A stretch of DNA of 64,000 nt from contig JAFLEH010000023.1 of the NCBI GenBank assembly GCA_017301995.1, forward strand, positions 1 to 64,000, read 5' to 3'. Position numbers and translations under genes: made by a program. This document shows, in pieces, positions 10,556 to 63,167 of this stretch; positions within the stretch are counted from its first letter, which is position 1; the number at the start of each line of letters is the position of its first letter. Under the pieces are notes generated by a model that saw nothing but the letters and a program-made list of their open reading frames with translations, had not been told where the DNA came from and ran no database searches. This stretch comes from Verrucomicrobiota bacterium (lineage in GTDB: Bacteria; Verrucomicrobiota; Verrucomicrobiia; Verrucomicrobiales; Akkermansiaceae).

Positions 10556-11701
10556 ATGACACGGCTTTGCATGGCGGCTTTGCCCGCCGTTTTCATGCTT
10601 GCGGGCTGCAAGAAGCCTGTTCCCCAGACCCTCCCGCCACCGGTGGTCGGGATTCTCGAGATCAAGGAGTCGGAGATCTCCATGACCGCATCCATCATCG
10701 GCCAACTCGACTCCCCGCAGAATGTGGAGATCCGCGCGCGGGTGGAGGCGTTTGTGGAGAAAATCTGTTTTACCGAAGGTTACAACGTGAAACAGGGCGA
10801 CCTTTTGTTTGAGCTGGACAAGAAGCCATTCGTGGAGCGGCTTGCCGCCTCGAAAGCCGACCAGGCCAAGGCTGACGCCGGACTCAAGAAAGCCGAGGCC
10901 GATCTGGCAAGGATCAAGCCCCTTGCGGGAACCGGGGCGGTTTCCAAACAGGATCTCGACAACGCCACCGCGGCGGTCGATGCCGCCAAGGCCTCGCTGG
11001 AAGCGGCCAAGGCCAAGGTGGAGTCCTCGCAGATTGATTTGGGGTATTGCGACGTGCGCTCGCCAATCAACGGGCTGATCGGCGCCAAGGAGGTTTCGGT
11101 GGGCGATCTGGTGGGCAAGGGGCAGGCCACGCTGCTGGCCACCATGTCGTCTCTCAACCCGATCTGGTGCTATTGCAACATCGCGGAGGTGGATTTCATC
11201 AAGATCAAGAACCGCGCGTTGGAGTTGGGCTTGGATATTGGCAAGCTCCCGCTCACGCTGGTGCTGCCTAACGGCCAGGATCATCCGGAGCGCGGCAAGC
11301 TGGTGTTTTTCGATCGCGCCGTCTCAACGAAAACCGGCACGATGCGGGTGAGGGCGGAGTTTCCCAATCCGACGGAAATCCTCCGGCCCGGGATGTTTGT
11401 GAGAGTTAGATTCGAGGGGGGGACGCGGCCCGGCATCCAGATTCCGGAGCGCGCCGTGATGGAAATCCAGGGCAAGGCTTTCGTCTGGGTGGTGGATGAC
11501 AAACGGATCGCCACCCAGCGCCCGATCCGGTTGGGCGAGCAGAAGGATTCCCGTTTTGTCGTCCTCGAAGGACTGAAACCCGGCGAGCGGATCGTGGTCG
11601 AGGGCGTCAACAAAGTCCGCGAGGGGGCTCCCGTCATGACTCCCGCCGACCTGGCGGCCCACGCCGGTGGCGCAGCCGGCAAACAACCCGCCAAACCCTG
11701 A
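10556..11701 (+). CDS. RND efflux periplasmic adaptor (membrane fusion) lipoprotein
   Basis: From ATG 10556 the N-terminus is a compact lipoprotein signal with lipobox L-A-G-C (C18); an in-frame ATG at 10499 would prepend 19 unusual residues. The protein (381 residues) has the AcrA/MexA layout. First comes a barrel-sandwich half (V-E-I-R-A-R-V-E-A-F-V, G-D-L-L-F-E-L-D). An alpha-hairpin rich in K-A-D/K-A-E heptads follows (~100-165). The second lipoyl half is S-P-I-N-G-L-I-G, and the beta-barrel and membrane-proximal domain contain the R-P-G-M-F-V-R-V motif. It joins the inner-membrane pump to an outer-membrane channel, which is not encoded here. The pump gene follows after six bases. Confidence 0.92.
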   Translation: MTRLCMAALPAVFMLAGCKKPVPQTLPPPVVGILEIKESEISMTASIIGQLDSPQNVEIRARVEAFVEKICFTEGYNVKQGDLLFELDKKPFVERLAASKADQAKADAGLKKAEADLARIKPLAGTGAVSKQDLDNATAAVDAAKASLEAAKAKVESSQIDLGYCDVRSPINGLIGAKEVSVGDLVGKGQATLLATMSSLNPIWCYCNIAEVDFIKIKNRALELGLDIGKLPLTLVLPNGQDHPERGKLVFFDRAVSTKTGTMRVRAEFPNPTEILRPGMFVRVRFEGGTRPGIQIPERAVMEIQGKAFVWVVDDKRIATQRPIRLGEQKDSRFVVLEGLKPGERIVVEGVNKVREGAPVMTPADLAAHAGGAAGKQPAKP

Positions 11702-50497: not shown

Positions 50498-51247
50498 TCA
50501 TTCGGGCGTGGCAGAACGCCGCATCAGCCAGGTGGTGAGCAGATCGGTGACCTCCTCTTCGAGCGTGATGCCGAACCCGGCCGTGCGGTGTTTGAAAGTG
50601 TGATAGAGCGCGAGGAACGGGATCGCCACCGCAATTCCAAGACCGGTGGTGACCAGGGCCTCCGAAATGCCGCCGGCCAATTGGGTGGCATCACCCAGGG
50701 ATCCCGCGAGCGAAACCGTCTCAAAGGTTTCGATCATTCCCAGAATCATGCCCAGCAATCCCAACAGCGGTGCGAGGGTGGCCACGATTCCCAACGGATA
50801 GGCGCGCTGGTAGTGCCCGGCCAGTTCGCGGCTGACGAGATCCCCGCAGATGGCGGACACCTCCGTCATTGGAGCGGTGCGGTTCCGGGCGATGAACGCG
50901 ATCACTCGCCCGAGCGTACTCGGCTCCGACTCGCCGAAACGCTCGAGGCTGGAAAAATCGCCATCCGCCCACAATTCGCGGGCGCGCTGGGAAAGTCCGA
51001 CAGGTGCCAGATATTTGCGACGCAGACGGAACACGCGTTCGAACGCAAAGCCCGCGCCGAACATGGACAGCGCGAGTTGTACGAGGGCGGTGTTGCCACC
51101 GGCCTTGAGCTTCCCGGCCCAACCTGTGCTGTGGATCGCGACGGATGCCGGGGCCGGTGGGTCGGCTGCCGGCTCCGTCCCGGCGGAGACCAGCGGATTC
51201 ACCGCGATTAATGTTAGGACGGATAGCAACGCAAATCGCCGGCGCAT
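50498..51247 (-). CDS. exbB: ExbB/TolQ/MotA-family proton channel
   Basis: 249 residues. An N-terminal signal-like segment (L-L-S-V-L-T-L-I-A-V-N-P-L-V-S-A) and a Pro/Ala linker precede TM1 (V-Q-L-A-L-S-M-F-G-A-G-F-A-F). The MotA_ExbB domain follows with G-I-V-A-T-L-A-P-L-L-G-L-L-G-M-I-L-G-M-I and G-G-I-S-E-A-L-V-T-T-G-L-G-I-A-V-A-I-P, the channel-lining helices with their conserved Thr residues. An extended periplasmic N-terminus is common in Bacteroidota/Verrucomicrobiota ExbB. It is the first motor gene, 43 bases downstream of a giant secreted protein gene with which it may be cotranscribed. Confidence 0.93.
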   Translation of the reverse strand: MRRRFALLSVLTLIAVNPLVSAGTEPAADPPAPASVAIHSTGWAGKLKAGGNTALVQLALSMFGAGFAFERVFRLRRKYLAPVGLSQRARELWADGDFSSLERFGESEPSTLGRVIAFIARNRTAPMTEVSAICGDLVSRELAGHYQRAYPLGIVATLAPLLGLLGMILGMIETFETVSLAGSLGDATQLAGGISEALVTTGLGIAVAIPFLALYHTFKHRTAGFGITLEEEVTDLLTTWLMRRSATPE

Positions 51248-51290
51248 GTCGGGTCGGATCGGGTGGAGTGGTTCAGCCGCTGTCTGGCGA

Positions 51291-54200
51291 TCAGGGATTC
51301 AGCTCGACCCGATAGAACGCCTTGCCTGCGGGTGGGGACGGATCGGTGTATTGCGTGGAACCGCCGGATCCGGCGGGCAGGGTGGCGGTTAGCGTGGTCC
51401 AGGTGGCCATGTCCGTGGTGCGTTTCACCGTGAATGTCACGCCGGCCGCGCTCGGCCAGGCGATGGTGAAGCCGTCGGCCGGATTGGTATCGGTGGTGGC
51501 GATGCCGAAACGGGAGGCGCTGCTGTTAGGATCGAGTCCCAGACGGAACTCGGTCAGGTTGTCGGTTCCATCCGCGTCCGGGTCGGCGGCGGCGGTTTGG
51601 GCGAGATTGCCGAAGTGGGTCGTTTCCCACGCGTCCAGCATGCCGTCGTTGTCGCTATCCGAGTTGGCGACCACCGAGAGAACGCCGGTGGTTTGCTCAA
51701 ACTGATAGACCCGGGCGGCGTCGATGGTTTTCTTCCATGCCGTGCCGGACCGGCTGAAGCCGGAGATGGAAAACGTGGACCCGTAGTTCTTCGCGCCGGT
51801 GTTGGCGACGAGGTTCCATGTGTCGCCGATGGTGGAGCCCGCGCCCGTGGTGTCGATGTTCACCGTGCCATCGAGGGTCACGGCCTTCGATCCGGTGATC
51901 GCGTTGTTCACGCCGGAGGCGCCGCAAACGAAGTTGAACGCGCCCGTCGCGCCGAGGGCGAACGGCGACTCGGCGGCAAGGCTGCCCGTCCAGGTGTTGG
52001 CGCCGGTGAATGTGACGTTTCCATTGGCGGCCACGAGGCTCAGATTGCCGACTCCGGAAACAAGCGAGTTTACGGTTAGGCTGCCGTTCTGGGCGTACAT
52101 TTCCGAAGCGCCGCGCACCAGGATGTTGCCACCGACAGTGACGAGTCCGTTGCCGTTGGAGCCATTGTGGATGCGTCCGCCGTCAAGCACGAGGTTGCCG
52201 ATGGTGTGATTGCTGTTCGATTTGAACAGCAGGTTGCCGCCGGTGGCCATCACCAGCCGCGCGCCGGCGAACGTGTAATCACCGCCAGCCGTGTAGGGCG
52301 CGCGCAAGCTGTTCACCGCCACATAGTAGTTGATGCCGGCGAGCGGGGCGAAATGGTCGCTCCAGTTGGTGGCGGCATCGTAGGAGATGGTGGTGGCGCT
52401 GTTGGCATCGCCGACGAGCAATTTGGCACCATCCGCGATGCCGTCACCATTCGCGTCCGCGAAACTCGCGGCGCTCTTCGGGTCGGTCAGATCTACCGCC
52501 ATCTCCTGCTTGTTGGTTGCGCCGTCGCCATCGGCGTCGGTCCACGGGGCCTGTGCCAGGTCGGCGGGTTCCACGACTCCGTCATTATCGCCGAAGGTGG
52601 CGTCTTCAATGGTTAGATCGTCCCATCCGTCGCCGTCGTTGTCGTAGGCTGTGGCAGTGGTCAGATTGCCGAAGGTGGCGGTTTCCCAACCGTCGTTCAG
52701 GTTGTCGCCGTCGCTGTCCGGCCAGGAGTTGGCATCATCCGGTTCGGTGCCGGCGAGGAACTCCGCGAGGTCGGTGTTGTGGTCGGAATCATAGTCGCCG
52801 GTGCCATCGCGGGAAGTGCCGCCGAAGTTGGCGACCTCCCAACTGTCAGACATGCCGTCGCCGTCGAGGTCGGGATTGATGACCAGCAGGGCACCGGTAC
52901 TTTCGTAGAACACGAGGTCCACGGCACCGAGACTCTTGGTCCATGTACGGCTGCCTGCGGTGCCTGCGGAAACGATGAACCCGGGGATGTTGAAGGTCGC
53001 GCCGTAGGTTTTCGTGCCGGTGGATGCGACGAGATTCCAGGTATTGCCAACCGTCAGATCGGTGCCGGAGGTATTGATATTGAAATCGCCGTGGAAAGTG
53101 ACGGCGCCCGCGCCGGTGATGTTGTTGGACGTGCCATTCAACGTGGGGAGGAAGTTGAACGAGCCCGGATCCTCGACGACGAACGGATTGGCGGTGCTCA
53201 GGCTTCCGGTCCAGGTATTGGTGGAGTTGAAACGGATGGTGCCGGTGCCGGTGAATGTCAGATTGCCGGTTCCGCCAAGCGCGGAGTCGATGGTGATGGT
53301 GCGAGCCGCATTGGGGCTGTCGAAGGTGGACGGAGCGGTCACGGTTAGGGTTCCCGCGAGTGTGACCGGTGTGTTGTTGCCGGTCCCGTTCTCCACTTTG
53401 CCGCCGGCGACGCGAAGATTGGCGGTGGTGCTTCCGTTGCCGTTCTTCAGTGTCAGGATTCCGGTCGGGGCTATGGTCAGACGGTCGCCGGCGAATGTGA
53501 AATCGCTGGAGCCCGCCGTGGTAATGTCCGGGGTGCGGATCCGCTTGTTTGCCAGATAAATGCTGCCTGCGATCGGGGCTTGTCCGTTTTCCCAATTCAT
53601 GCCGCCGGTAAACGAGGTGGTAGCAGGCGGTGTGGCGTTCACATCGTCAGCGAGCAGAATGTGTCCGTCGCCCGATCCATCCCCGTCGAGATCCGGAAAC
53701 TGGCTGTTGTCGGTAGGACTGGTGAAAGAGACCGATTCCTGATAGTTGAGGGCGCCGTCGCCGTCGCCATCGGCGGCGAGATTGTTTTGGGCGGTTAGGT
53801 CGGAGGGTTCCACGGTTCCGCTGTTGTCGCCGTAAAACGCATCCTCCCACAGGTCCGCGAGTTTGTCGCCGTCGTGGTCGGTGGCGGTCGCGGTGGTTAG
53901 GTTGGAGAATGTGAACATCTCCCATCCGTCATTCACGCCGTCGGCATCCGAGTCGGGCCATGAGTTCCCATCGATCGGGTTTGTTCCGGCAAGGGATTCC
54001 GCGCCGTTGGTGTTGTGGTCGGAGTCGTCGTCAGCGGCGGCGTTGTTCTGGACGGCCAGATCGGACGGCTCCACGGTTCCGCTGTTGTCGCCGTAGTGAA
54101 GGTCCTCCCACAGGTCGGCGAGGCCGTCGCCATCGGTGTCATCGACTGTCGCGGTGGTCAGATTGCCGAAGGTGGCCATTTCCCAACCGTCGTTGAGGCC

Positions 54201-55856
54201 GTCGGAATCGCTGTCCGGCCAGGAGTTGGCGTTCTTCGGGTCAGTGCCCGCGATGAATTCCGCAAGGTCCTTGTTCTGATCGGAATCGTAGTCACTTGCG
54301 GCGGTGGCGGTGGTTAGGTTGCCGAAGGTGGCGATTTCCCAGGCGTCCTCCATGCCGTCGGCGTCGCTGTCGTGGCTGACGAGCGTGCTGTTGGAGGTGG
54401 TGAATACCCATCCGCCGCCCTTCCAGACGCCCGGTGTGTCTTCGACCCACCCGGTGATCGAGAAGGTGGGGCCGTAGGTCACTGATGCCGCGTCAGCGAG
54501 CACATAGGACGCGGCGGGGGAGGTTACCGCTGAGGTGTCTATGGCAAAGTCACCGTCAATCATCGCGGTGCCGGACCCGGTGATCTTGTTGGATGCGGTG
54601 TTGGTTACCTTGAAGGTGAGTTTGGCGTTGTCGGCGAGTGTCAGGATTCCCGAGTTGATTGTGGTGGTGCCGGTGTAGGTGTTGACTCCCGATAGGGTGG
54701 TGGTACCGGAACCGGCGAAGGTGAGGCCCGCCGTGCCGCCCATTGCCTGGCCGATACCGATGTTGAACCCGTTGTTGTCGATCGTGCTGTTGGAGTTGAC
54801 GTTCACCGTGGCGCCGGTGAGGCCGGTCATGAATGAGGCCTGGGTGGCGTTGGCCTTGAGCGTGCCGCCGGTGAAGTTGAACGTCGCGGTGGACGCCAGG
54901 CTGATGACTTTTGGCGCGGTCAGGGTGCCGGCCAGGTTGAGGGTCGAGGCCGGGCCGGCGTTGCGGGTGAGTCCGAAGGAGGTGGTGGTATTGAGCACGG
55001 ACACAGCGCCGCCCGACTCGATGGTGAGCGTGTTGTTGCCGGATCCGGTGCCCGCTGATCCGCCGGCTACCCACAATGAGGCTCCGCTTTCATTGCCCGC
55101 GGTGGTGTTGACGTTGATGACGCCGCCGCTTTTGACATTGAAGGAAATCGTATCGCCGTCCCGTTCGGAGATGCGGATGCCGTCGTTGCCCTGCAACAGG
55201 GACAGGGTGCCGTAGAGATTCACCGTGCCGTTTCCGACGAAGCGGATACCTCCATTGGCCGGACTGTTGTCACGCACGACGGAGGCTCCGGCGTTGATGT
55301 TCAAAACCGCACCCGCACCGAGAAACGTCTGCGCGGAATAGCCGGTGTTGGAAATGTTCATCTTAAGGACCGTTGTGTCGCTTCCGCTCCCGATATTGAA
55401 CGTTTTTCCCGCCGCGAGATAGAGTGCCGAATTCGTGTCGGTGGTGGAGGATCCGGTCGAGTTGGCGTAGCTCAGGGATAGGATGTTGGAGCCGTTGTTC
55501 GTCAGGGTGAACCCTGTATTGTTGACAAACAAGCTGGTTGCGGTGATGGCTGCGCCGGTGGTGACCGGCCACACTCCGTCTGTGCCGTCGGTGCCCGCAT
55601 TGGTGTTCACGGCGGACGATGCCGTGGCACCGGTGCCGGCGAGAACGGCCACGCTGCCGGACGTCCACGCCGCCAGAGTCGTGCCGTCGGCGGTCCAGAA
55701 GTTGTTCGTGCCCCATGTGCCGGCTGCGGGTTGGACGTTCGAGGTGATAGTGCTGTCCCAATACTGGGTGGCGGCCTCCGCGGTCCGGATACCAAGTGAC
55801 GACAAAGCGGCGGTGAGTCCGAGGCTGGAGAATAGCAAGGGGGTTTTCGGTTTCAT
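51291..55856 (-). CDS. giant secreted beta-strand-repeat protein with calcium-binding spacers
   Basis: ATG 55856 (M-K-P-K-T-P-L-L-F-S-S-L-G) starts a signal peptide; in-frame codons upstream overlap the regulatory motif. 1521 residues in three rounds. Each has a T/N/G/V-rich beta-helix block of the autotransporter-associated repeat type (T-T-L-S-G-V-N-T-Y-T-G-T-T), a Y-V/W-N-L-V-A-x-T strand, then D-rich spacers (D-S-D-A-D-G-x-x-D-A/G-W-E with F-G-N-L-T-T-A-T). Y-G-D-N-S-G-T-V-E-P-S-D-L occurs twice. There is no autotransporter barrel and no clear PEP-CTERM; it ends in the same kind of F-Y-R-V-E-L-N-P tail as the amylases. It is probably an adhesin or surface-layer protein. It shares a near-identical 554-base segment with the next gene upstream. 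Confidence 0.8.
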   Translation of the reverse strand: MKPKTPLLFSSLGLTAALSSLGIRTAEAATQYWDSTITSNVQPAAGTWGTNNFWTADGTTLAAWTSGSVAVLAGTGATASSAVNTNAGTDGTDGVWPVTTGAAITATSLFVNNTGFTLTNNGSNILSLSYANSTGSSTTDTNSALYLAAGKTFNIGSGSDTTVLKMNISNTGYSAQTFLGAGAVLNINAGASVVRDNSPANGGIRFVGNGTVNLYGTLSLLQGNDGIRISERDGDTISFNVKSGGVINVNTTAGNESGASLWVAGGSAGTGSGNNTLTIESGGAVSVLNTTTSFGLTRNAGPASTLNLAGTLTAPKVISLASTATFNFTGGTLKANATQASFMTGLTGATVNVNSNSTIDNNGFNIGIGQAMGGTAGLTFAGSGTTTLSGVNTYTGTTTINSGILTLADNAKLTFKVTNTASNKITGSGTAMIDGDFAIDTSAVTSPAASYVLADAASVTYGPTFSITGWVEDTPGVWKGGGWVFTTSNSTLVSHDSDADGMEDAWEIATFGNLTTATAASDYDSDQNKDLAEFIAGTDPKNANSWPDSDSDGLNDGWEMATFGNLTTATVDDTDGDGLADLWEDLHYGDNSGTVEPSDLAVQNNAAADDDSDHNTNGAESLAGTNPIDGNSWPDSDADGVNDGWEMFTFSNLTTATATDHDGDKLADLWEDAFYGDNSGTVEPSDLTAQNNLAADGDGDGALNYQESVSFTSPTDNSQFPDLDGDGSGDGHILLADDVNATPPATTSFTGGMNWENGQAPIAGSIYLANKRIRTPDITTAGSSDFTFAGDRLTIAPTGILTLKNGNGSTTANLRVAGGKVENGTGNNTPVTLAGTLTVTAPSTFDSPNAARTITIDSALGGTGNLTFTGTGTIRFNSTNTWTGSLSTANPFVVEDPGSFNFLPTLNGTSNNITGAGAVTFHGDFNINTSGTDLTVGNTWNLVASTGTKTYGATFNIPGFIVSAGTAGSRTWTKSLGAVDLVFYESTGALLVINPDLDGDGMSDSWEVANFGGTSRDGTGDYDSDHNTDLAEFLAGTEPDDANSWPDSDGDNLNDGWETATFGNLTTATAYDNDGDGWDDLTIEDATFGDNDGVVEPADLAQAPWTDADGDGATNKQEMAVDLTDPKSAASFADANGDGIADGAKLLVGDANSATTISYDAATNWSDHFAPLAGINYYVAVNSLRAPYTAGGDYTFAGARLVMATGGNLLFKSNSNHTIGNLVLDGGRIHNGSNGNGLVTVGGNILVRGASEMYAQNGSLTVNSLVSGVGNLSLVAANGNVTFTGANTWTGSLAAESPFALGATGAFNFVCGASGVNNAITGSKAVTLDGTVNIDTTGAGSTIGDTWNLVANTGAKNYGSTFSISGFSRSGTAWKKTIDAARVYQFEQTTGVLSVVANSDSDNDGMLDAWETTHFGNLAQTAAADPDADGTDNLTEFRLGLDPNSSASRFGIATTDTNPADGFTIAWPSAAGVTFTVKRTTDMATWTTLTATLPAGSGGSTQYTDPSPPAGKAFYRVELNP
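54733..55286 (-). repeat. 554-bp duplicated segment, copy 1
   Basis: This segment is nearly identical to 58438-58991, without gaps, at a constant offset of 3705 bases; about 15 substitutions were counted by eye. It encodes the beta-helix stretch running from N-I-N-A-G-A-S-V-V-R-D-N-S-P through the R-I-S-E-R-D-G-D-T-I-S-F block to G-Q-A-M-G-G-T-A. Confidence 0.9.
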
Positions 55857-55971
55857 GCTGATAGGTTTCAATGAGGTTGGTATGGCGGAAGGCTTGATTT
55901 CGTTGGTTGGCCGGAATTCGTCCGACCCTTGAAAGGTTGAGTCCATTCGACCAAACTCCGGCAGATCGCAA

Positions 55972-56006
55972 CAAGGCTGAAATGGCGCGCTCCCCCTAAA
56001 TGGGGA
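55972..56006 (-). promoter_or_regulatory. shared regulatory element, copy 1
   Basis: On the plus strand CAAGGCTGAAAT (55972-55983) is followed at the same register as in copy 2 by TCCCCCTAAATGGGGA (55991-56006), an imperfect inverted repeat TCCCC/GGGGA. The element starts 116 bases upstream of the giant-protein ATG, exactly the distance seen for copy 2 at 59641. Confidence 0.65.
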
Positions 56007-56075
56007 CCGTCTGGACACAGTCGTGCGGCGCTCCGCAACAAGACGCAGGGACGCATCAGGAACCCGCGCCGCGAG

Positions 56076-59000
56076 TCACCTGCGGCGGCGCAGCACACCT
56101 ACGGCCCCGAAGGCCACTAGCAGCGCGGCGGAGGTTTCCGGAATCACTACGAGTCTGAGGCTGCCCTGTTCGAAGTAAGCCGAACGTCCGCCGCCGATGT
56201 CGTAAGCGTTCGCAGCACCGAAATTGTCCAGTCCGGCCAACGAAAAATCAGTGGCCGTGCCGTCGATCAGGGTGTAGCTGCCGTCCGCAACGGAGGACCA
56301 GGACACTCCGGTTAGGTTATCAATACCAAATCCCGTTCCGAAGGTGACGGTGCCGTTCACCGTGAGCGGGTCGGCAATTGCCTGGGCGATGTCGAAGAGC
56401 CCGCCCGCCGCGAAGGCAAGGTTGCCGCCCAGAGTCCCGTTGCCGCCAATATTGGCACCCGAGTTGACGGTGACCGCGGTGGCTCCGAGCGCGCCGGTGA
56501 CCAACAGCGTGCCGGCGGAGACCGTGGTGGCTCCGGTGTAGGTGCTGGTTCCGGATAGGGTCCAAACGCTGTTGCCGCTCTTGACGATGGCGACGCTGTT
56601 AGCGCCGGTGGCCGCGCCGTTGCTGATCTCGCCGGTCACCTGGTGGGAGCCGTCCGCACCCGCGAGTTCCAGGGTCTGGGAGACATTGTTGTTCGACTTG
56701 GTGGCCGATCCGATGGAAACCGTCACACCTGTGCCCGGATTGATAACCGTGTTGGTTCCGGTGGATCCGGCACCCATGTTGAAGGTATCGAACTGGAGCG
56801 TTCCCGCCGTAACGGCACCGCCGAGGGAGATGTTCACCGTGCCACGGCCCACGCCATTGGTTGTTCCCGTGCTGAGAGAGTGGGTGACGGCGGTTGCTCC
56901 CGCGCTGTCCAGCACCACATTGAAATTGGTGGTGCCCGACCCGAATGAGATATCATAAGGAGTGAGGCTGCCGTCGGTCTTGAATGTCACCGTGCCGGTG
57001 GTGTTGCTGGCCAGCGTGATCACGCTTGCGGTGCCGAGCGCCTGGGTGTTTCCGATGATCAGTCCGGTGTTGTTTCCAAGAGTGACGTTGGTGCCAGATC
57101 CGGTATTCGCCCCCAAGATGGCGAGAGGACCGGCGCCCGCGTCGAGCGTCGTGGGATCGGTGTAGGAGTTGGTGCCAGTGAGAGTCATCGCGCCGGCACC
57201 GGCCTTGCGAAAGCCCAATCTTCCGGCGCCTCCGTCGGTTAGAGCGCCGGAGAACGTGTTGTCGGTGGCGTTGGTGACGATCAGCCAGCGGGTTGTGGCG
57301 CTGCCATTCTGGATGGTTCCCGATCCCGCGAGTCCGGTGGCGGTTAGATCGTTCAAACCGATCCCGAGCGTTCCCGCGCTGACCGTGAGCGTTCCGGTGA
57401 GCGTGGAGTTGCCGCCCGCGGGATTGAGTTGGAGCGTTCCAGCCCCGTTCTTGGTCAAGCCGCCGCCCGCGTTGGTGATCCGCCCTGTGGTCAGGGTGCC
57501 TGCGGCGACCGTGACGGTTCGGTCGCCGCCGCTGAGTGTCACCGCGCCAGTGCCGAGGCTGAGGTTGCTGGTGCCGGTGAAGGCGAAATCGCCGGACACA
57601 TTGACAGCGTTGTTGGTGGAAAGGGTGGTGGAGTTGGTGGAATCCAGCGCGCCTCCGGCAAGGGTGAGCGCACCTGCACCGATCGCCGAGGCGTTGTTGA
57701 GGGTGAGCGTGCCCGCGTTGAGGGTGGTTCCGCCCGAATAGCTGTTCGCGGTGGAGATGGTTAGGCCGGCCGCGCCGCCCTTGGTCAGTGATCCGCTGCC
57801 GGAAATCCCGCCCGTTCCAGTCCAGGCGTGGTTGTAGGTCGGGTTGTTGACCGTCATGCTGGCGGGGGTCACGGTTCCGGTGACCGTCGCGGCGGCATCC
57901 GCTCCAGGCGTGTCATCGAATATCACCGTGTCGCTGTTCCAGAATTCATTGTCGCCTCCGTTGGTCCATGGAGTGGTGGTGCCCACGCGCCAGATTCCGC
58001 TGGTGGCGTTCCAGGTATCGGTGGAAGCCGACCCGGCGGTGAATTGGAGCATGGTGCCCGAAGTGCTGAACACCCCGCGGCTGGTTTTCACCAGATTGGT
58101 GTATCCGCTGGTCAGGCCGCCGGCTCCGAAGTCGATCACATCATAGGTGTTTCCGCCGGTCAGACCGCTGGAAAAACTTAGCGTCGTGGCACCGGAGAAA
58201 TTCACGCCGTTGGCGGCGAACTCGTCCGCCGGATCGACGGTTAGGGATGATCCTGCGGAGAAAGTGGCCGACCCGGTGGTGCCGCCAGTGCCTTTCAGAG
58301 TGCCGCTGACCGTTATGGCGGAAGCGAGCGATCCGTTCACTTCGAGCGTGCTGCCTGCATCGACGGCGGTGGCGCCACCATAGCCGTGGGTTCCGGTTAG
58401 AGTAGTGGTGCCCGCGCCTTTGAAGGTAAGGCCCGCGGTGCCGCCCATTGCCTGGCCGATACCGATGTTGAACCCGTTGTTGTCGATCGTGCTGTTGGAG
58501 TTGACGTTCACCGTGGTGCCGGTGAGGCCGGTCATGAACGAGGCCTGGGTGGCGTTGGCCTTGAGCGTGCCGCCGGTGAAGTTGAACGTCGCGGTGGACG
58601 CCAGGCTGATGACTTTGGGCGCGGTCAGGGTGCCGGCCAGATTGAGGGTCGAGGTCGGGCCGGCGTTGCGGGTGAGGCCGAAGGAGGTGGTGGTGTTGAG
58701 CACGGACACAGCGCCGCCCGACTCGATGGTGAGCGTGTTGTTGCCGGATCCGGTGCCCGCTGCCCCCCCGGCGACCCACAATGAGGCTCCGCTTTCATTG
58801 CCCGCGGTGGTGTTGACGTTGATGACGCCGCCGCTTTTGACATTGAAGGAAATCGTATCGCCGTCCCGTTCGGAGATGCGGATGCCGTCGTTGCCCTGCA
58901 ACAGGGACAGGGTGCCGTAGAGATTCACCGTGCCGTTTCCGATGAAGCGGATCCCGCCGTTGGCCGGACTGTTGTCACGCACGACGGAGGCGCCGGAGTT

Positions 59001-59525
59001 GATATTGAGCGTCGAACCGCTGCCCACGAACAGTTGGGCGCTGTATCCGGTATTGGTGATATTGAGTTTAACCACGGTGGAATCGGCTCCGGAACCGATG
59101 TTCAGTGTTTTTCCGGCCGCCAGCCACAGGGCGCCGTTGTTGTCGGTGGTGGAGGATCCGGTGGTGTTGGCGTAGCCCAGTGTGATGGAATTCGTGCCGT
59201 TGTTGGCGAGCGTATAGCCGCCCGTGCCGACCAGCAAGCGGCCCGCGCTCACGGCTGCGTCGTTTGTCAGGGTATAGGTTCCATCCGAACCGCCTAAGGT
59301 GGCATCAAAGCCGCTGTTGGCGGTGCCATTGACCCACGATGCGTTCGCCGATCCCGTCCACCAGTTGGTGTTGGAAGTGTTCCATGTGCCCGATCCGGCT
59401 TGCGCGCCGGATGTTCCGGTATCGGCATCCCAGGTGAGACTGGCACCGGTCGCGCTGATGGCGGTGGCGATTGTGACGGCGGCGAGGCCGAGCGGGCGGA
59501 TGGCGGTGTGGGGTTTGGGCTTCAT
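56076..59525 (-). CDS. giant secreted beta-strand-repeat protein with PEP-CTERM-like sorting tail
   Basis: ATG 59525 (M-K-P-K-P-H-T-A-I-R-P-L-G) begins the signal peptide; 1149 residues. The body is a continuous beta-helix of autotransporter-associated repeats, G/T/N/L-rich with N-T-Y-S-G-G-T-T-L-N-A-G-T-L and S-T-Y-T-G-A-T-T-V-S-A-G-T-L-L-V motifs about every 40 residues. The C-terminus reads I-P-E-T-S-A-A-L-L-V-A-F-G-A-V-G-V-L-R-R-R: a P-E dipeptide, transmembrane stretch and Arg cluster, the PEP-CTERM signal for exosortase-dependent surface sorting. No exosortase is present in this window. It lies downstream of the two-component genes, preceded by the conserved hairpin motif. Confidence 0.85.
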   Translation of the reverse strand: MKPKPHTAIRPLGLAAVTIATAISATGASLTWDADTGTSGAQAGSGTWNTSNTNWWTGSANASWVNGTANSGFDATLGGSDGTYTLTNDAAVSAGRLLVGTGGYTLANNGTNSITLGYANTTGSSTTDNNGALWLAAGKTLNIGSGADSTVVKLNITNTGYSAQLFVGSGSTLNINSGASVVRDNSPANGGIRFIGNGTVNLYGTLSLLQGNDGIRISERDGDTISFNVKSGGVINVNTTAGNESGASLWVAGGAAGTGSGNNTLTIESGGAVSVLNTTTSFGLTRNAGPTSTLNLAGTLTAPKVISLASTATFNFTGGTLKANATQASFMTGLTGTTVNVNSNSTIDNNGFNIGIGQAMGGTAGLTFKGAGTTTLTGTHGYGGATAVDAGSTLEVNGSLASAITVSGTLKGTGGTTGSATFSAGSSLTVDPADEFAANGVNFSGATTLSFSSGLTGGNTYDVIDFGAGGLTSGYTNLVKTSRGVFSTSGTMLQFTAGSASTDTWNATSGIWRVGTTTPWTNGGDNEFWNSDTVIFDDTPGADAAATVTGTVTPASMTVNNPTYNHAWTGTGGISGSGSLTKGGAAGLTISTANSYSGGTTLNAGTLTLNNASAIGAGALTLAGGALDSTNSTTLSTNNAVNVSGDFAFTGTSNLSLGTGAVTLSGGDRTVTVAAGTLTTGRITNAGGGLTKNGAGTLQLNPAGGNSTLTGTLTVSAGTLGIGLNDLTATGLAGSGTIQNGSATTRWLIVTNATDNTFSGALTDGGAGRLGFRKAGAGAMTLTGTNSYTDPTTLDAGAGPLAILGANTGSGTNVTLGNNTGLIIGNTQALGTASVITLASNTTGTVTFKTDGSLTPYDISFGSGTTNFNVVLDSAGATAVTHSLSTGTTNGVGRGTVNISLGGAVTAGTLQFDTFNMGAGSTGTNTVINPGTGVTVSIGSATKSNNNVSQTLELAGADGSHQVTGEISNGAATGANSVAIVKSGNSVWTLSGTSTYTGATTVSAGTLLVTGALGATAVTVNSGANIGGNGTLGGNLAFAAGGLFDIAQAIADPLTVNGTVTFGTGFGIDNLTGVSWSSVADGSYTLIDGTATDFSLAGLDNFGAANAYDIGGGRSAYFEQGSLRLVVIPETSAALLVAFGAVGVLRRRR
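58438..58991 (-). repeat. 554-bp duplicated segment, copy 2
   Basis: Partner of 54733-55286 at constant offset 3705 with no gaps; flanks on either side diverge quickly at DNA level although protein similarity continues for some 60 residues towards the N-terminus. Confidence 0.9.
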
Positions 59526-59640
59526 TGGCTGAGGTGGACTCGGTTTTGGTGGGTTAGGGGAAAGCGCGCGGAAGCGATTCCGCATGCGCGGGATCGAATG
59601 CCGGAAAAGGGTACACTCCCACCCAATTACCCTTGTAAAA

Positions 59641-59678
59641 CAAGGCTCAAATCGAAGCATCCCCAAAAATGGGGATGC
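59641..59678 (-). promoter_or_regulatory. shared regulatory element, copy 2 (perfect hairpin/operator)
   Basis: CAAGGCTCAAAT (59641-59652) is followed by GCATCCCCA-AAA-ATGGGGATGC-type dyad symmetry at 59657-59678, nine of nine bases pairing. It begins 116 bases upstream of the PEP-CTERM gene ATG and 17 bases after the response-regulator stop. It could be an operator, part of the promoter, or a terminator reused as a leader. Confidence 0.7.
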
Positions 59679-59694
59679 GCGTTCCCCCGCCCCG

Positions 59695-60330
59695 CTACTG
59701 CGGTCCGAGGAATTTCACCACCGCTTCCGTGCGGGTTCTCACATGGAGTTTCTTGTATATTTTGTCGATATGGGTGCGCACCGTTTCAAAACCGATACCC
59801 AACTCCGCAGCGATTTCCTTGTAGAGGCTGCCCTTGGCCAGCATCCCGAGGATTTGGGCCTCGCGCGGGGTCAGGTTGTGGTCGGTGTCCGGGGCGGATG
59901 GCAGTTTTTGGAAATGCTGGACCACCTTGCGTGCGATCGCACCGGACATCGGAGATCCGCCCGTCACCAGATCCTCCAGCGCCTCGACCAACTTCGCCGG
60001 CACATCGCGTTTGAGCAAATACCCGGACGCCCCTGCGGCCAACGCGTCGAAAATCCGCTCGCTGTTGTCGTAAACCGTAACCATCATCACATGCGTGGCG
60101 GGGTGCAGAGCCTTGAGCCGGGCGACACACCCGATGCCGGACATGCCGGGGAGTTGGATGTCCATCAGCACCACCGGCGGGCAGGATTTCGCCAGATCCG
60201 CGAGCGCGGACTCCGCGTCCGGATAATGCGATTTCACCCGCCACCGCGAGGAGCCGAGGATTTCCCGCATCAGCGATGAAAGGTTGGGGTCGTCCTCGAC
60301 GATGGCGATTTCGTTCGGTGGTTCGTTCAT
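59695..60330 (-). CDS. NarL/LuxR-family response regulator
   Basis: ATG 60330 overlaps the kinase stop as ATGA; 211 residues. Receiver domain 1-~120: acidic pocket E12/D13/D14, phosphoacceptor D57 in V-V-L-M-D-I-Q-L-P-G, the conserved T in M-V-T-V-Y-D, and K in L-L-K-R-D. The C-terminal LuxR helix-turn-helix (~145-205) reads L-T-P-R-E-A-Q-I-L, then K-E-I-A-A-E-L-G-I-G-F-E-T-V-R-T-H-I-D-K-I-Y-K-K-L. It is phosphorylated by the adjacent kinase and binds inverted-repeat operators. The palindrome at 59657-59678, just downstream, is an obvious candidate site. Confidence 0.95.
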   Translation of the reverse strand: MNEPPNEIAIVEDDPNLSSLMREILGSSRWRVKSHYPDAESALADLAKSCPPVVLMDIQLPGMSGIGCVARLKALHPATHVMMVTVYDNSERIFDALAAGASGYLLKRDVPAKLVEALEDLVTGGSPMSGAIARKVVQHFQKLPSAPDTDHNLTPREAQILGMLAKGSLYKEIAAELGIGFETVRTHIDKIYKKLHVRTRTEAVVKFLGPQ

Positions 60331-62873
60331 GGTTTGCCGGATCGCGTGTTGGTTGATAGACGGCAAACCAGCCTCACGGTGGCGCCGTTTCCGGGTGAGG
60401 ATTCGATTTCGGCCGTCCCGCCGATTTCCTCCAAGCGGCCGCGGATATTGGTTAGTCCGTGGCCGCCGCCAGCCGCCGCGGAATCAAACCCCGTCCCATT
60501 GTCCCGCACCGTGATGCGGATCCACCCGTCGGCGAATTCCATACCGAGGCCGACTTCCGTGCATCCCGAATGTCTCAGGGCGTTGTGCAAAGCCTCCTTG
60601 GTAGCCATCGCCAGATGGTGGCGCATTTCCGCGCCCAGTGCCACCTGCGGAAGTTCCAGAGGGATGTCCAGACGGCAGCGCACCCCGGGTTCGCGGAACA
60701 AATGGTCGGCAAGCTGCGCCAGATGCTCGCCGAGGTGATTGATCGTGTCGAATCCGGGGTCCACCGCCCAAACCAAGCCCTCCATCGCCTCGACCATCTC
60801 GCGGTTTTTTTCCCGAAGGCTGGCCAAATGGGCGGCCGCACGTTCCGGGGTCAGGGCCAGATCGCGTTCCGCGAGCGCGGCGGCCATACCGATCACCGTC
60901 ACGCGGGTGCCAAGGTCATCGTGCATGTCGCGGGCGATCCGGCTGCGTTCGCGAGCCAGGGCGTTTTGCAGGCGCAGTCCACTGACTTTGCGATGGGCGC
61001 GGTGGCGGATCATGGTGACGATACCGACTCCAAGCGAACCGACGACAACCGCCGCCACAAGCGCCCAAAACCATGGTCTCCCGGTTATCGGCGCGCGGAT
61101 TGTGAAGGGAAACCGAACATAATCCGTAGTGCGGTCGCCGCTGGCCGCCACTGCAGCCACTTCGAACACATAATTTCCGGGCGGCACATTGGCGAAAGTC
61201 GCCTGCTGGCGGTTCCCGCCGATCACATGGAACATCTCCCTGCCCCGCAGCACCAGCGTCCCGCCCTCCCTTGGCAAAGCCGGCAACGGCAGCGAGATCG
61301 TCCACTCGCCCGATCCCGTCTGATCTCCGTCCACCAACGCAAGCGCCGGATTGTTTTCCAACAGCACCATGCAGGCTACCGTGGGCGCGGATCCCCCGCG
61401 ACTCCAACCCGCCGGCACCCCGTGGGCGAACTGGATGTCCGCGCCCCGCTCAAATCCGGAATTCGCCAGCAACGAAACCGTCCGACCCTGCCCGGGACGG
61501 TAAAGCAGCTCCAGATCGTCCAGAATCCCAACCCCCACCGTATCATCCGTGCCCGACGAAAACCGGATTCTAACCATCTTGCCGGTGCCCGGAATGTGCA
61601 GCGGCTCGCTCCATTCGGCCAGTTTCGAGTCCTCTATACCCGTCATCCACCGCGCGCTGGCGCCGATCATCGGACGGCTGACCCACGAAACCACACCTCC
61701 CTCGGCGTCCAACACCTCTATGGTTAGGGCCATGCCTCTGACGCTCTCGGTCCATTGGTCGTCGAGACCGCCCAGCCGGCACCGGAAGCTCACCCGCGAC
61801 TGCCGGACCGTCGGTTCCGCACCAAAATCGAATTCCAACCGATGGGTTCCGGCCGGAAGGATCAGGGATTCTCCGGAGGGCGCGGGCGCGCCGTTCACCA
61901 GCACCCTCGCCAAATCAACCCGCAGCGGTTCCTCGCGTTTCAGGGTCGCGGCCACCATTTCCGGAGATTTTCTAGCTGAAACCGGCACGAAGATGAAATC
62001 GGTGGGATCCCGCGCGACCGAGCTGATCCTGACCTCGTCGAGCCGCCCCACGAACGGCTCCGATGCCAAAGCCGCGCCCGCCTCGTTGCCGATGGCAAAA
62101 TCCGAGATGCCGGAAAGGTCCTCCTGCAACAGCCCCTGGCCGATGAGATTGGCCCGTTCGCGCGGGCCATCAAGCCGGGTCCAATAAAGTTTCAGGCTGT
62201 TGGCGGCCCCTTCGTTTCCGTCATAGGTTACGGCCAGATGGAACCAGTCGGTGGTGTTGATCGCGTCCGGCCCGGAGATCGGAATCACCGCCAGCGCGCC
62301 AGCCCCGCGATTCCGTTCGGTTAGGGGAATGAATGACAGGAAACCGGACTTTTCCACCCGCCAGTTGAATTCACGGTGGCCGCCCTCGCCGTCCATCGAA
62401 ACAATCACGGCCGCCCAGCCCAAACCATCCGATGGCGGTGCGTCGAACCGCGCCAGCGCCTCGATGGTGAACGCGCCGTCCTTACCCGTGTAGCGGAAAT
62501 CCGCCGGAGCATTGTCGCCGGGGCCATTGTCCAGCGCCGGGGTGGACAGAAGGATCCCGCCGTTGGTTCGGTGAAAGCCCGGTTCGGTGCTCGCGTTGTG
62601 ATGGAAAAATACCGAAGCTCCCATCCCCGGAGCCGCAGGCCTCCCGGCGGCGGCTCCGTTCAGCAATCCCTGGAGTTTCAAGCCGCCAGTCACCGCGTCC
62701 GCGAAGGGAGCCGCCTTCTCGTCCAAGTGCCAAAGATGCAGCGTTTGGTGATCCCCCTGATAGGGCGCGAGTTCCGGCACGGCGTACGCCATCATCGGGA
62801 TCGCCACGGATGCGGCGATCCACGCGGCCAACCCGCCTGAATTCTCCCAAACGCGATAATTCCGGAAAAACAT
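60327..62873 (-). CDS. hybrid-architecture sensor histidine kinase with LamG-like extracellular domain
   Basis: 848 residues. N-terminal export/TM segment (A-A-W-I-A-A-S-V-A-I-P-M-M-A). Residues ~40-275 are a LamG/concanavalin-like lectin fold (L-H-L-W-H-L-D-E, F-T-I-E-A-L-A-R-F, W-F-H-L-A-V-T-Y-D-G-N, G-R-L-D-E-V-R-I-S). Further beta domains and a Y_Y_Y-like domain (~555-600, F-E-V-A-A-V-A) lead to TM at ~602-622. The cytoplasmic kinase is HisKA_3: R-I-A-R-D-M-H651-D-D-L-G, N-box region E-A-L-H-N-A-L-R-H-S, G-box D-N-G-T-G-F-D and G-H-G-L-T-N-I-R-G-R. It probably senses a polysaccharide or surface ligand. The start lies 294 bases from the divergent secreted enzyme gene. Confidence 0.9.
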   Translation of the reverse strand: MFFRNYRVWENSGGLAAWIAASVAIPMMAYAVPELAPYQGDHQTLHLWHLDEKAAPFADAVTGGLKLQGLLNGAAAGRPAAPGMGASVFFHHNASTEPGFHRTNGGILLSTPALDNGPGDNAPADFRYTGKDGAFTIEALARFDAPPSDGLGWAAVIVSMDGEGGHREFNWRVEKSGFLSFIPLTERNRGAGALAVIPISGPDAINTTDWFHLAVTYDGNEGAANSLKLYWTRLDGPRERANLIGQGLLQEDLSGISDFAIGNEAGAALASEPFVGRLDEVRISSVARDPTDFIFVPVSARKSPEMVAATLKREEPLRVDLARVLVNGAPAPSGESLILPAGTHRLEFDFGAEPTVRQSRVSFRCRLGGLDDQWTESVRGMALTIEVLDAEGGVVSWVSRPMIGASARWMTGIEDSKLAEWSEPLHIPGTGKMVRIRFSSGTDDTVGVGILDDLELLYRPGQGRTVSLLANSGFERGADIQFAHGVPAGWSRGGSAPTVACMVLLENNPALALVDGDQTGSGEWTISLPLPALPREGGTLVLRGREMFHVIGGNRQQATFANVPPGNYVFEVAAVAASGDRTTDYVRFPFTIRAPITGRPWFWALVAAVVVGSLGVGIVTMIRHRAHRKVSGLRLQNALARERSRIARDMHDDLGTRVTVIGMAAALAERDLALTPERAAAHLASLREKNREMVEAMEGLVWAVDPGFDTINHLGEHLAQLADHLFREPGVRCRLDIPLELPQVALGAEMRHHLAMATKEALHNALRHSGCTEVGLGMEFADGWIRITVRDNGTGFDSAAAGGGHGLTNIRGRLEEIGGTAEIESSPGNGATVRLVCRLSTNTRSGKP

Positions 62874-63167
62874 AATCCATCCGCCGCAGGTCTCGCGGCT
62901 CCTCCCCGAAACGGACTATGCGGTCCGGCCCCTGTCCGGCGCAAGCAAAACCAATCCCATCGCGCGCGCGCAGATCCCGCACTCGCCACCTCGCGATCAT
63001 CGGGCTAACCAAATCACCGCCCGCGATCAGCCCCATCGGGTCGAACGTCGGGAACAACTTCCACATCATGCAGTGGATCGCCGTTCTAACCACATGAACC
63101 AAGGTGGAATCGTCCCCCGGCGTACCGATGGAGATTTTCCAGCAAGAATCCGCCACCTGCGCCGCGT

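What the first reader, a model, noticed from the sequence alone, without database searches (positions are those of the whole stretch)
55972..59678. Same hairpin element at exactly 116 bases before two giant surface-protein genes
CAAGGCT[C/G]AAAT, then TCCCC at +19, A/T spacer and GGGGA, occurs before both beta-repeat genes. The element edge is 116 bases from the ATG in each case (55972 to 55856; 59641 to 59525), although the sequence in between differs. Copy 2 is a perfect nine-base dyad. Fixed spacing argues for a promoter-linked operator or leader element and against mere terminators. The LuxR-type regulator gene ends 17 bases from copy 2. Its natural reading is coordinated control of a surface-protein regulon by the adjacent two-component system.
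Basis: partly seen in the sequence, partly recalled or inferred. Interest (0 to 1): 0.72.

Follow-up and report, generated by a model that had tools for sequence, protein, structure and literature searches.

The report
Regulator-binding switch before two surface-protein genes
Two neighbouring giant surface-protein genes in a Luteolibacter/Haloferula-like (Verrucomicrobiota) bacterium carry the same inverted DNA repeat followed by a promoter, and the repeat recurs at the same place before surface-protein genes in related species that carry the adjacent two-component regulator, so it is most likely that regulator's landing site.

Summary
On the minus strand, a 16-bp dyad (TCCCCATTTTTGGGGA; TCCCCATTTAGGGGGA), a spacer and ATTT[G/C]AGCCTTG precede both beta-repeat (PATR) genes, and each element edge is 116 bases from the ATG. 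The composite occurs nowhere else in the 7.04-Mb genome. The same dyad lies 68-128 nt before secreted surface-protein genes in six related genomes that carry close orthologues of the adjacent LuxR-type response regulator. The conserved spacing is not 116. It is dyad to a -35-like TTG, 16-17 nt in all 11 aligned sites, with the best -10 at an 18-bp spacer. That puts the dyad near -61, a usual activator position. A swapped-dyad control gave 0 of 11 hits before secreted-protein starts; the real patterns gave 10 of 18 and 13 of 27. A paralogous regulator group with another recognition helix has a different 16-bp dyad at the same position. Terminator or leader-RNA readings fit poorly. In this genome the regulon found is only these two genes, out of about 75 PATR genes examined. 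The operator is of the known NarL 7-2-7 type. Binding and activation are inferred, not shown.

The parts
59660..59675 (-). Operator copy 2: 16-bp dyad TCCCCATTTTTGGGGA (7-2-7 layout), core of a 9-bp inverted repeat 59657-59678
55991..56006 (-). Operator copy 1: 16-bp dyad TCCCCATTTAGGGGGA
   Evidence: shares CCCCATTTAGGGGG with sites in G061 and G013
59638..59643 (-). -35-like hexamer TTGTTT, 17 nt after the 14-mer dyad core (TTG is the end of the ATTTGAGCCTTG box)
   Evidence: inferred promoter element
55969..55974 (-). -35-like hexamer TTGTTG, 17 nt after the 14-mer dyad core
   Evidence: inferred
55945..55950 (-). -10-like TCGAAT at spacer 18 (copy 1); the equivalent position in copy 2, 59614-59619 GGAGTG, is poor
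   Evidence: inferred
59641..59652 (-). ATTTGAGCCTTG box (copy 2)
55972..55983 (-). ATTTCAGCCTTG box (copy 1)
56076..59525 (-). Target gene B2: 1149-aa PATR/TIGR02601 beta-strand-repeat protein with a PEP-CTERM-like C terminus
51291..55856 (-). Target gene B1: 1521-aa PATR/TIGR02601 protein; first 380 aa 73% identical to B2
59695..60330 (-). Response regulator (Response_reg + GerE/LuxR-type HTH, NarL/FixJ class), proposed binder
60327..62873 (-). Sensor histidine kinase (Laminin_G_3 + Y_Y_Y + HisKA_3 + HATPase_c), presumed cognate partner

Best explanation
Each element is the regulatory half of a promoter. A 16-bp 7-2-7 inverted repeat (YCCCCATTWANGGGGR) is bound by a dimer of the LuxR/NarL-type response regulator encoded next door. 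A -35-like TTG follows at a fixed 16-17 nt and a weak -10 at an 18-bp spacer, so the dyad is centred near -61. From there the phosphorylated regulator most likely recruits RNA polymerase and switches on the two tandem giant beta-repeat surface-protein genes when the laminin-G/Y_Y_Y histidine kinase senses its signal. Shown: the element, its position, its conservation, its co-occurrence with the regulator and its pairing with the recognition helix. Inferred: binding, phosphorylation dependence, activation rather than repression, and the transcript start.
For: Same gene order HK-RR-PATR with the dyad before the PATR gene in G061. The dyad precedes PATR genes located upstream of HK-RR in G165 and G013. 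Newly found sites before secreted genes in G026 (two), G013:C50, G061:C8 and G172:C20, and in Haloferula sp. BvORR071. Regulator orthologues of at least 64% identity exist in only 7 of 73 genus genomes, with the next at 55%. The composite pattern hits 7/7 of those against 9/66 others, Fisher P=7e-6; the exact dyad hits 5/7 against 8/66, P=0.0015. TTG sits at 16-17 nt in 11/11 sites, 9 of them found without requiring it; the -10 score peaks at spacer 18, 30 against about 15. Swapped-dyad control 0/11 before signal-peptide starts, real patterns 10/18 and 13/27. PWM on 1.02 Mb of this genome: 29.9 and 28.8, next independent hit 17.1. Group-B regulators (helix IDTVAFH instead of ETVRTH) pair with a different dyad, CTCCATAAACGTGGAG, 53-109 nt before their targets, including a paralogous locus in this genome. 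NarL dimers bind 7-2-7 inverted repeats and activate from positions such as -44.5, -67.5 and -77.5 (PMC7419079).
Against: No binding, expression or 5'-end data. Copy 2 lacks a good -10, and the sigma-70 consensus scan found no promoter. G171 (regulator 65% identical) and Roseibacillus persicicus (66%) show no site at the PWM threshold near the regulator. The TTG spacing was noticed by inspecting the sites, and the composite-pattern test is partly circular because some sites defined the pattern; G171's only composite hit is in low-complexity sequence. The dyad also turns up sporadically in genomes without the regulator.
Confidence: 0.77

Rival explanations
1. The hairpins are intrinsic terminators of the preceding genes (the regulator gene before copy 2, B2 before copy 1), conserved by chance or through duplication.
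For: Copy 2 is a stable 9-bp GC-rich stem just after the regulator stop, RNA fold z = -3.1, and is on the terminator-like list.
Against: No U-tract follows (TTCGATTT). Copy 1 folds no better than shuffles (z = -0.6). In relatives the same sequence follows unrelated genes and keeps a fixed distance to TTG. Its base sequence is conserved rather than only the pairing.
Confidence: 0.1
2. The element is only a remnant of a tandem duplication that made the two genes, with no function of its own.
For: The two proteins share 73% identity over the first ~380 aa and the same 116-base spacing.
Against: Upstream DNA between element and ATG has diverged to about background while the element stays about 79% identical, and the element is found at non-paralogous surface genes in other genomes.
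Confidence: 0.05
3. A promoter operator, but bound by a regulator other than the adjacent one (for example a repressor).
For: No binding data; some relatives with the regulator lack a recognisable site.
Against: Genome-level co-occurrence with this regulator's close orthologues and helix/dyad pairing across two regulator groups.
Confidence: 0.06
4. A 5' leader RNA element (riboswitch-like hairpin) in the mRNA of the surface genes.
For: Hairpin potential in copy 2; position within 160 nt of the ATG.
Against: No Rfam match; copy 1 folds weakly; a promoter-like -35/-10 lies downstream of the dyad; half-site sequence is kept instead of compensatory changes.
Confidence: 0.02

Closest known systems
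NarL/NarP 7-2-7 operators of Escherichia coli (e.g. ogt, yeaR-yoaG promoters; PMC7419079)
   Same: 16-bp inverted repeat of two 7-base half-sites with a 2-bp gap, upstream of the -35 box, bound by a LuxR-type (GerE) response regulator dimer; NarL can activate from several upstream positions including -67.5.
   Different: Half-sites are CCCCATT/NNGGGG-like, not the NarL consensus; the regulator falls far below NarL, NarP and other equivalog cut-offs; targets are giant surface proteins in Verrucomicrobiota; no nitrate-type sensor.
PEP-CTERM / PATR (TIGR02601) surface proteins
   Same: The target proteins carry these repeats, and B2 has a PEP-CTERM-like tail.
   Different: My library searches found no published description of their transcriptional control by an adjacent two-component system in Verrucomicrobiota.

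Membership tests
NarL/FixJ-class response regulator | N-terminal receiver domain plus C-terminal GerE (LuxR-type) HTH | tested here: met
   PF00072 8.4e-22 and PF00196 3.1e-16
NarL/FixJ-class response regulator | Member of a named equivalog (NarL, NarP, MctR and others) | tested here: not met
   All below curated cut-offs, e.g. NarL 107.6 against 250, MctR 114 against 300
7-2-7 operator of a LuxR-type response regulator | Inverted repeat of 7-bp half-sites with 2-bp gap | tested here: met
   Own copies and orthologous sites
7-2-7 operator of a LuxR-type response regulator | Bound by the cognate phosphorylated regulator | not testable with these tools
   Only co-occurrence and helix/dyad pairing
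Activator site upstream of a sigma-70-type promoter | Fixed position upstream of a -35/-10 pair | tested here: met
   TTG at 16-17 nt in 11/11 sites; -10 peak at spacer 18 over the set; weak -10 in copy 2
Intrinsic terminator | GC-rich stem followed by a U-tract | tested here: not met
   Stem in copy 2 but no uninterrupted run of T; copy 1 stem not better than shuffles
Known structured RNA (Rfam) | Covariance-model match | tested here: not met
   No match at gathering score in 51000-63000

The most novel reading that the evidence does not exclude
These bacteria carry dozens of giant PATR surface-protein genes (about 75 examined here), and a subset of them are run by private two-component systems, each with its own regulator recognition helix and its own 16-bp operator at a fixed place in front of the surface gene: a set of parallel, insulated switches for changing the cell coat. 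Two such helix/operator pairs are documented here in one genome.
Probability: 0.4. Interest if true: 0.65.

Novelty: new member of a known kind. Interest (0 to 1): 0.5.

Why it matters
It offers a specific, testable operator and promoter architecture for giant beta-repeat surface proteins in Verrucomicrobiota, whose control I found undescribed in the papers searched. It also gives two regulator groups whose recognition helix and DNA half-site change together, a natural test set for LuxR-type specificity, and suggests how a genome with some 75 such proteins could express a few at a time.

Tried and rejected
The 12-base ATTTSAGCCTTG box as a stand-alone genome-wide motif: 56 one-mismatch hits against 16 in the control, but the examined hits read as coding or are unrelated to surface genes at this spacing. 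Family-wide composite search: sporadic hits; an apparent burst in G122 and G090 is an unrelated interspersed repeat. Downstream neighbours of regulator homologues taken without sub-grouping showed no common target, resolved once regulators were split by identity and helix. Dyads upstream of about 75 other PATR genes in this genome: no clear enrichment of 16-bp dyads over shuffles, 32 against 27.5. Rfam: nothing.

Full report
OBSERVATION. The finding is exact. Read on the minus strand, copy 2 is TCCCCATTTTTGGGGA-TGCTTCG-ATTTGAGCCTTG-TTT and copy 1 is TCCCCATTTAGGGGGA-GCGCGCC-ATTTCAGCCTTG-TTG. Both lie in front of PATR/TIGR02601 beta-strand-repeat genes with the same 116-base distance from the box edge to the ATG. 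The composite pattern occurs only at these two places in the 7.04-Mb genome. The two proteins are 73% identical over their first 380 residues, but their upstream DNA is at background identity except for this element, so the element has been kept while its surroundings drifted.

THE 12-BASE BOX ALONE. ATTTSAGCCTTG has two further exact copies in the genome, neither in front of a surface gene. It is best read as spacer plus the start of a -35 box, not as an independent signal.

RELATIVES. The adjacent sensor kinase (laminin-G, Y_Y_Y, HisKA_3, HATPase_c) and LuxR-type response regulator have close orthologues (regulator at least 64% identical) in only seven of 73 genomes of the genus, this one included, with a clear gap to the next at 55%. 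In G061 the order kinase-regulator-PATR-PATR is the same as here; in G165 and G013 a PATR gene lies upstream of the kinase. In these loci a CCCC-ATTWAN-GGGG dyad precedes the PATR gene. In G165 and G013 the gene before the dyad is unrelated, so it cannot be the regulator's terminator.

GENUS-WIDE SEARCH. CCCCATTWWNGGGG has 18 places in 73 genomes and CCCCNTTNNNGGGGN{16,17}TTG has 27 listed, one of them an overlapping duplicate. Most of those in regulator-bearing genomes lie about 70-135 nt before secreted PATR, PEP-CTERM or laminin-like proteins. A composition-matched control with the half-sites swapped gave 11 places, none 50-190 nt before a signal-peptide start, against 10 of 18 and 13 of 27 for the real patterns. 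At genome level the composite pattern is present in 7/7 regulator-bearing genomes against 9/66 others (P=7e-6; partly circular) and the plain dyad in 5/7 against 8/66 (P=0.0015). A site also lies before a secreted gene next to the kinase in Haloferula sp. BvORR071, and G172 has a second, tandem dyad.

PROMOTER GEOMETRY. Aligning 11 sites, a TTG begins 16-17 nt after the 14-mer core in every one, including nine sites found without asking for it. The match to TATAAT, summed over sites, peaks at a spacer of 18 (30 against about 15 on average), e.g. TCGAAT in copy 1, TAGTTT in two G061 sites, TAATCC in G013. This puts the dyad centre near -61, within the range of positions (-44.5, -67.5, -77.5) from which NarL activates the ogt promoter and its derivatives (PMC7419079). 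Distances from dyad to ATG vary (68-128 nt in relatives), so the shared 116 in this window is a feature of this duplicated pair; what is constant is dyad to -35. Copy 2 has a weak -10.

RECOGNITION HELIX. Group A regulators (ETVRTH/ETVRSH in the recognition helix) go with CCCC/GGGG half-sites. A second regulator group (DTVAFH) goes with a different 16-bp dyad, CTCCATAAACGTGGAG and variants, 53-109 nt before its targets, including very large surface proteins; one such locus is in this same genome (contig C2, 83 nt before a 1528-aa PATR protein). That the dyad changes with the helix while the layout stays the same is the strongest indirect evidence that these regulators bind these dyads.

EXTENT OF THE REGULON. 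A PWM scan of 1.02 Mb of this genome, covering about 75 PATR genes, scores the two sites 29.9 and 28.8 and the next independent hit 17.1. So the regulon found here is the two tandem genes. Regulators of this subfamily tend to lie near PATR genes: 7 of 10 within 10 kb, where 15% of the genome qualifies (P about 1e-4). This suggests several private kinase/regulator/surface-protein cassettes.

ALTERNATIVES. Terminators: no U-tract, copy 1 not a stable hairpin, and the recurrence after unrelated upstream genes argues against. Leader RNA: no Rfam match and a promoter-like pair lies downstream of the dyad. Duplication remnant: excluded as sole explanation by cross-genome conservation. Another regulator: possible but less likely given co-occurrence and helix pairing.

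LIMITS. No binding, expression or 5'-end data exist here. The TTG spacing was noticed by eye before being tested, and part of the composite test is circular. G171 and Roseibacillus persicicus carry the regulator but no site was found near it. Activation rather than repression is inferred from position only.

Noticed in passing
L042, L043, L056, L057 (genomes G090, G122): A high-copy interspersed repeat CCCCAACGGGGATACGGATTTCAGCCCAGGGTTG..., over 50 places in G122, with tandem runs at about 85-base spacing. Looks like a dispersed repeat family unrelated to the operator.
   Followed up: no
own genome, contigs throughout: Very large PATR/TIGR02601 expansion: 150 repeat matches listed and about 75 gene frames in the fetched regions.
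   Followed up: partly
L313 (G000:C32), about 99 nt before the PATR gene starting at locus position 11465: Perfect 16-bp dyad TGACTAGTTCTAGTCA before a PATR gene next to another kinase/regulator pair; possibly a third private operator.
   Followed up: partly
L225, L235 (G179) and L038 (G144): Repeats with CCCCCTTCACGGGGGGCGCGGATTGAAAC and GTTTCAACCCGCGCCCCTGTGAAGGGGCGAC that look like CRISPR repeats.
   Followed up: no
window 50498-51247, minus strand: TolQ/ExbB-like proton channel gene directly downstream of B1.
   Followed up: no
window 51291 and 56076 (C termini of B1 and B2): B2 ends in a PEP-CTERM-like tail (VIPETSAALLVAFGAVGVLRRRR) while its paralogue B1 does not, so the two may be anchored differently.
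   Followed up: no
L336 (G172:C20), about 25 bp upstream of the main dyad: A second dyad TCCCACTTAAAGGGGA in tandem with TCCCCGTTTGGGGGGA.
   Followed up: no
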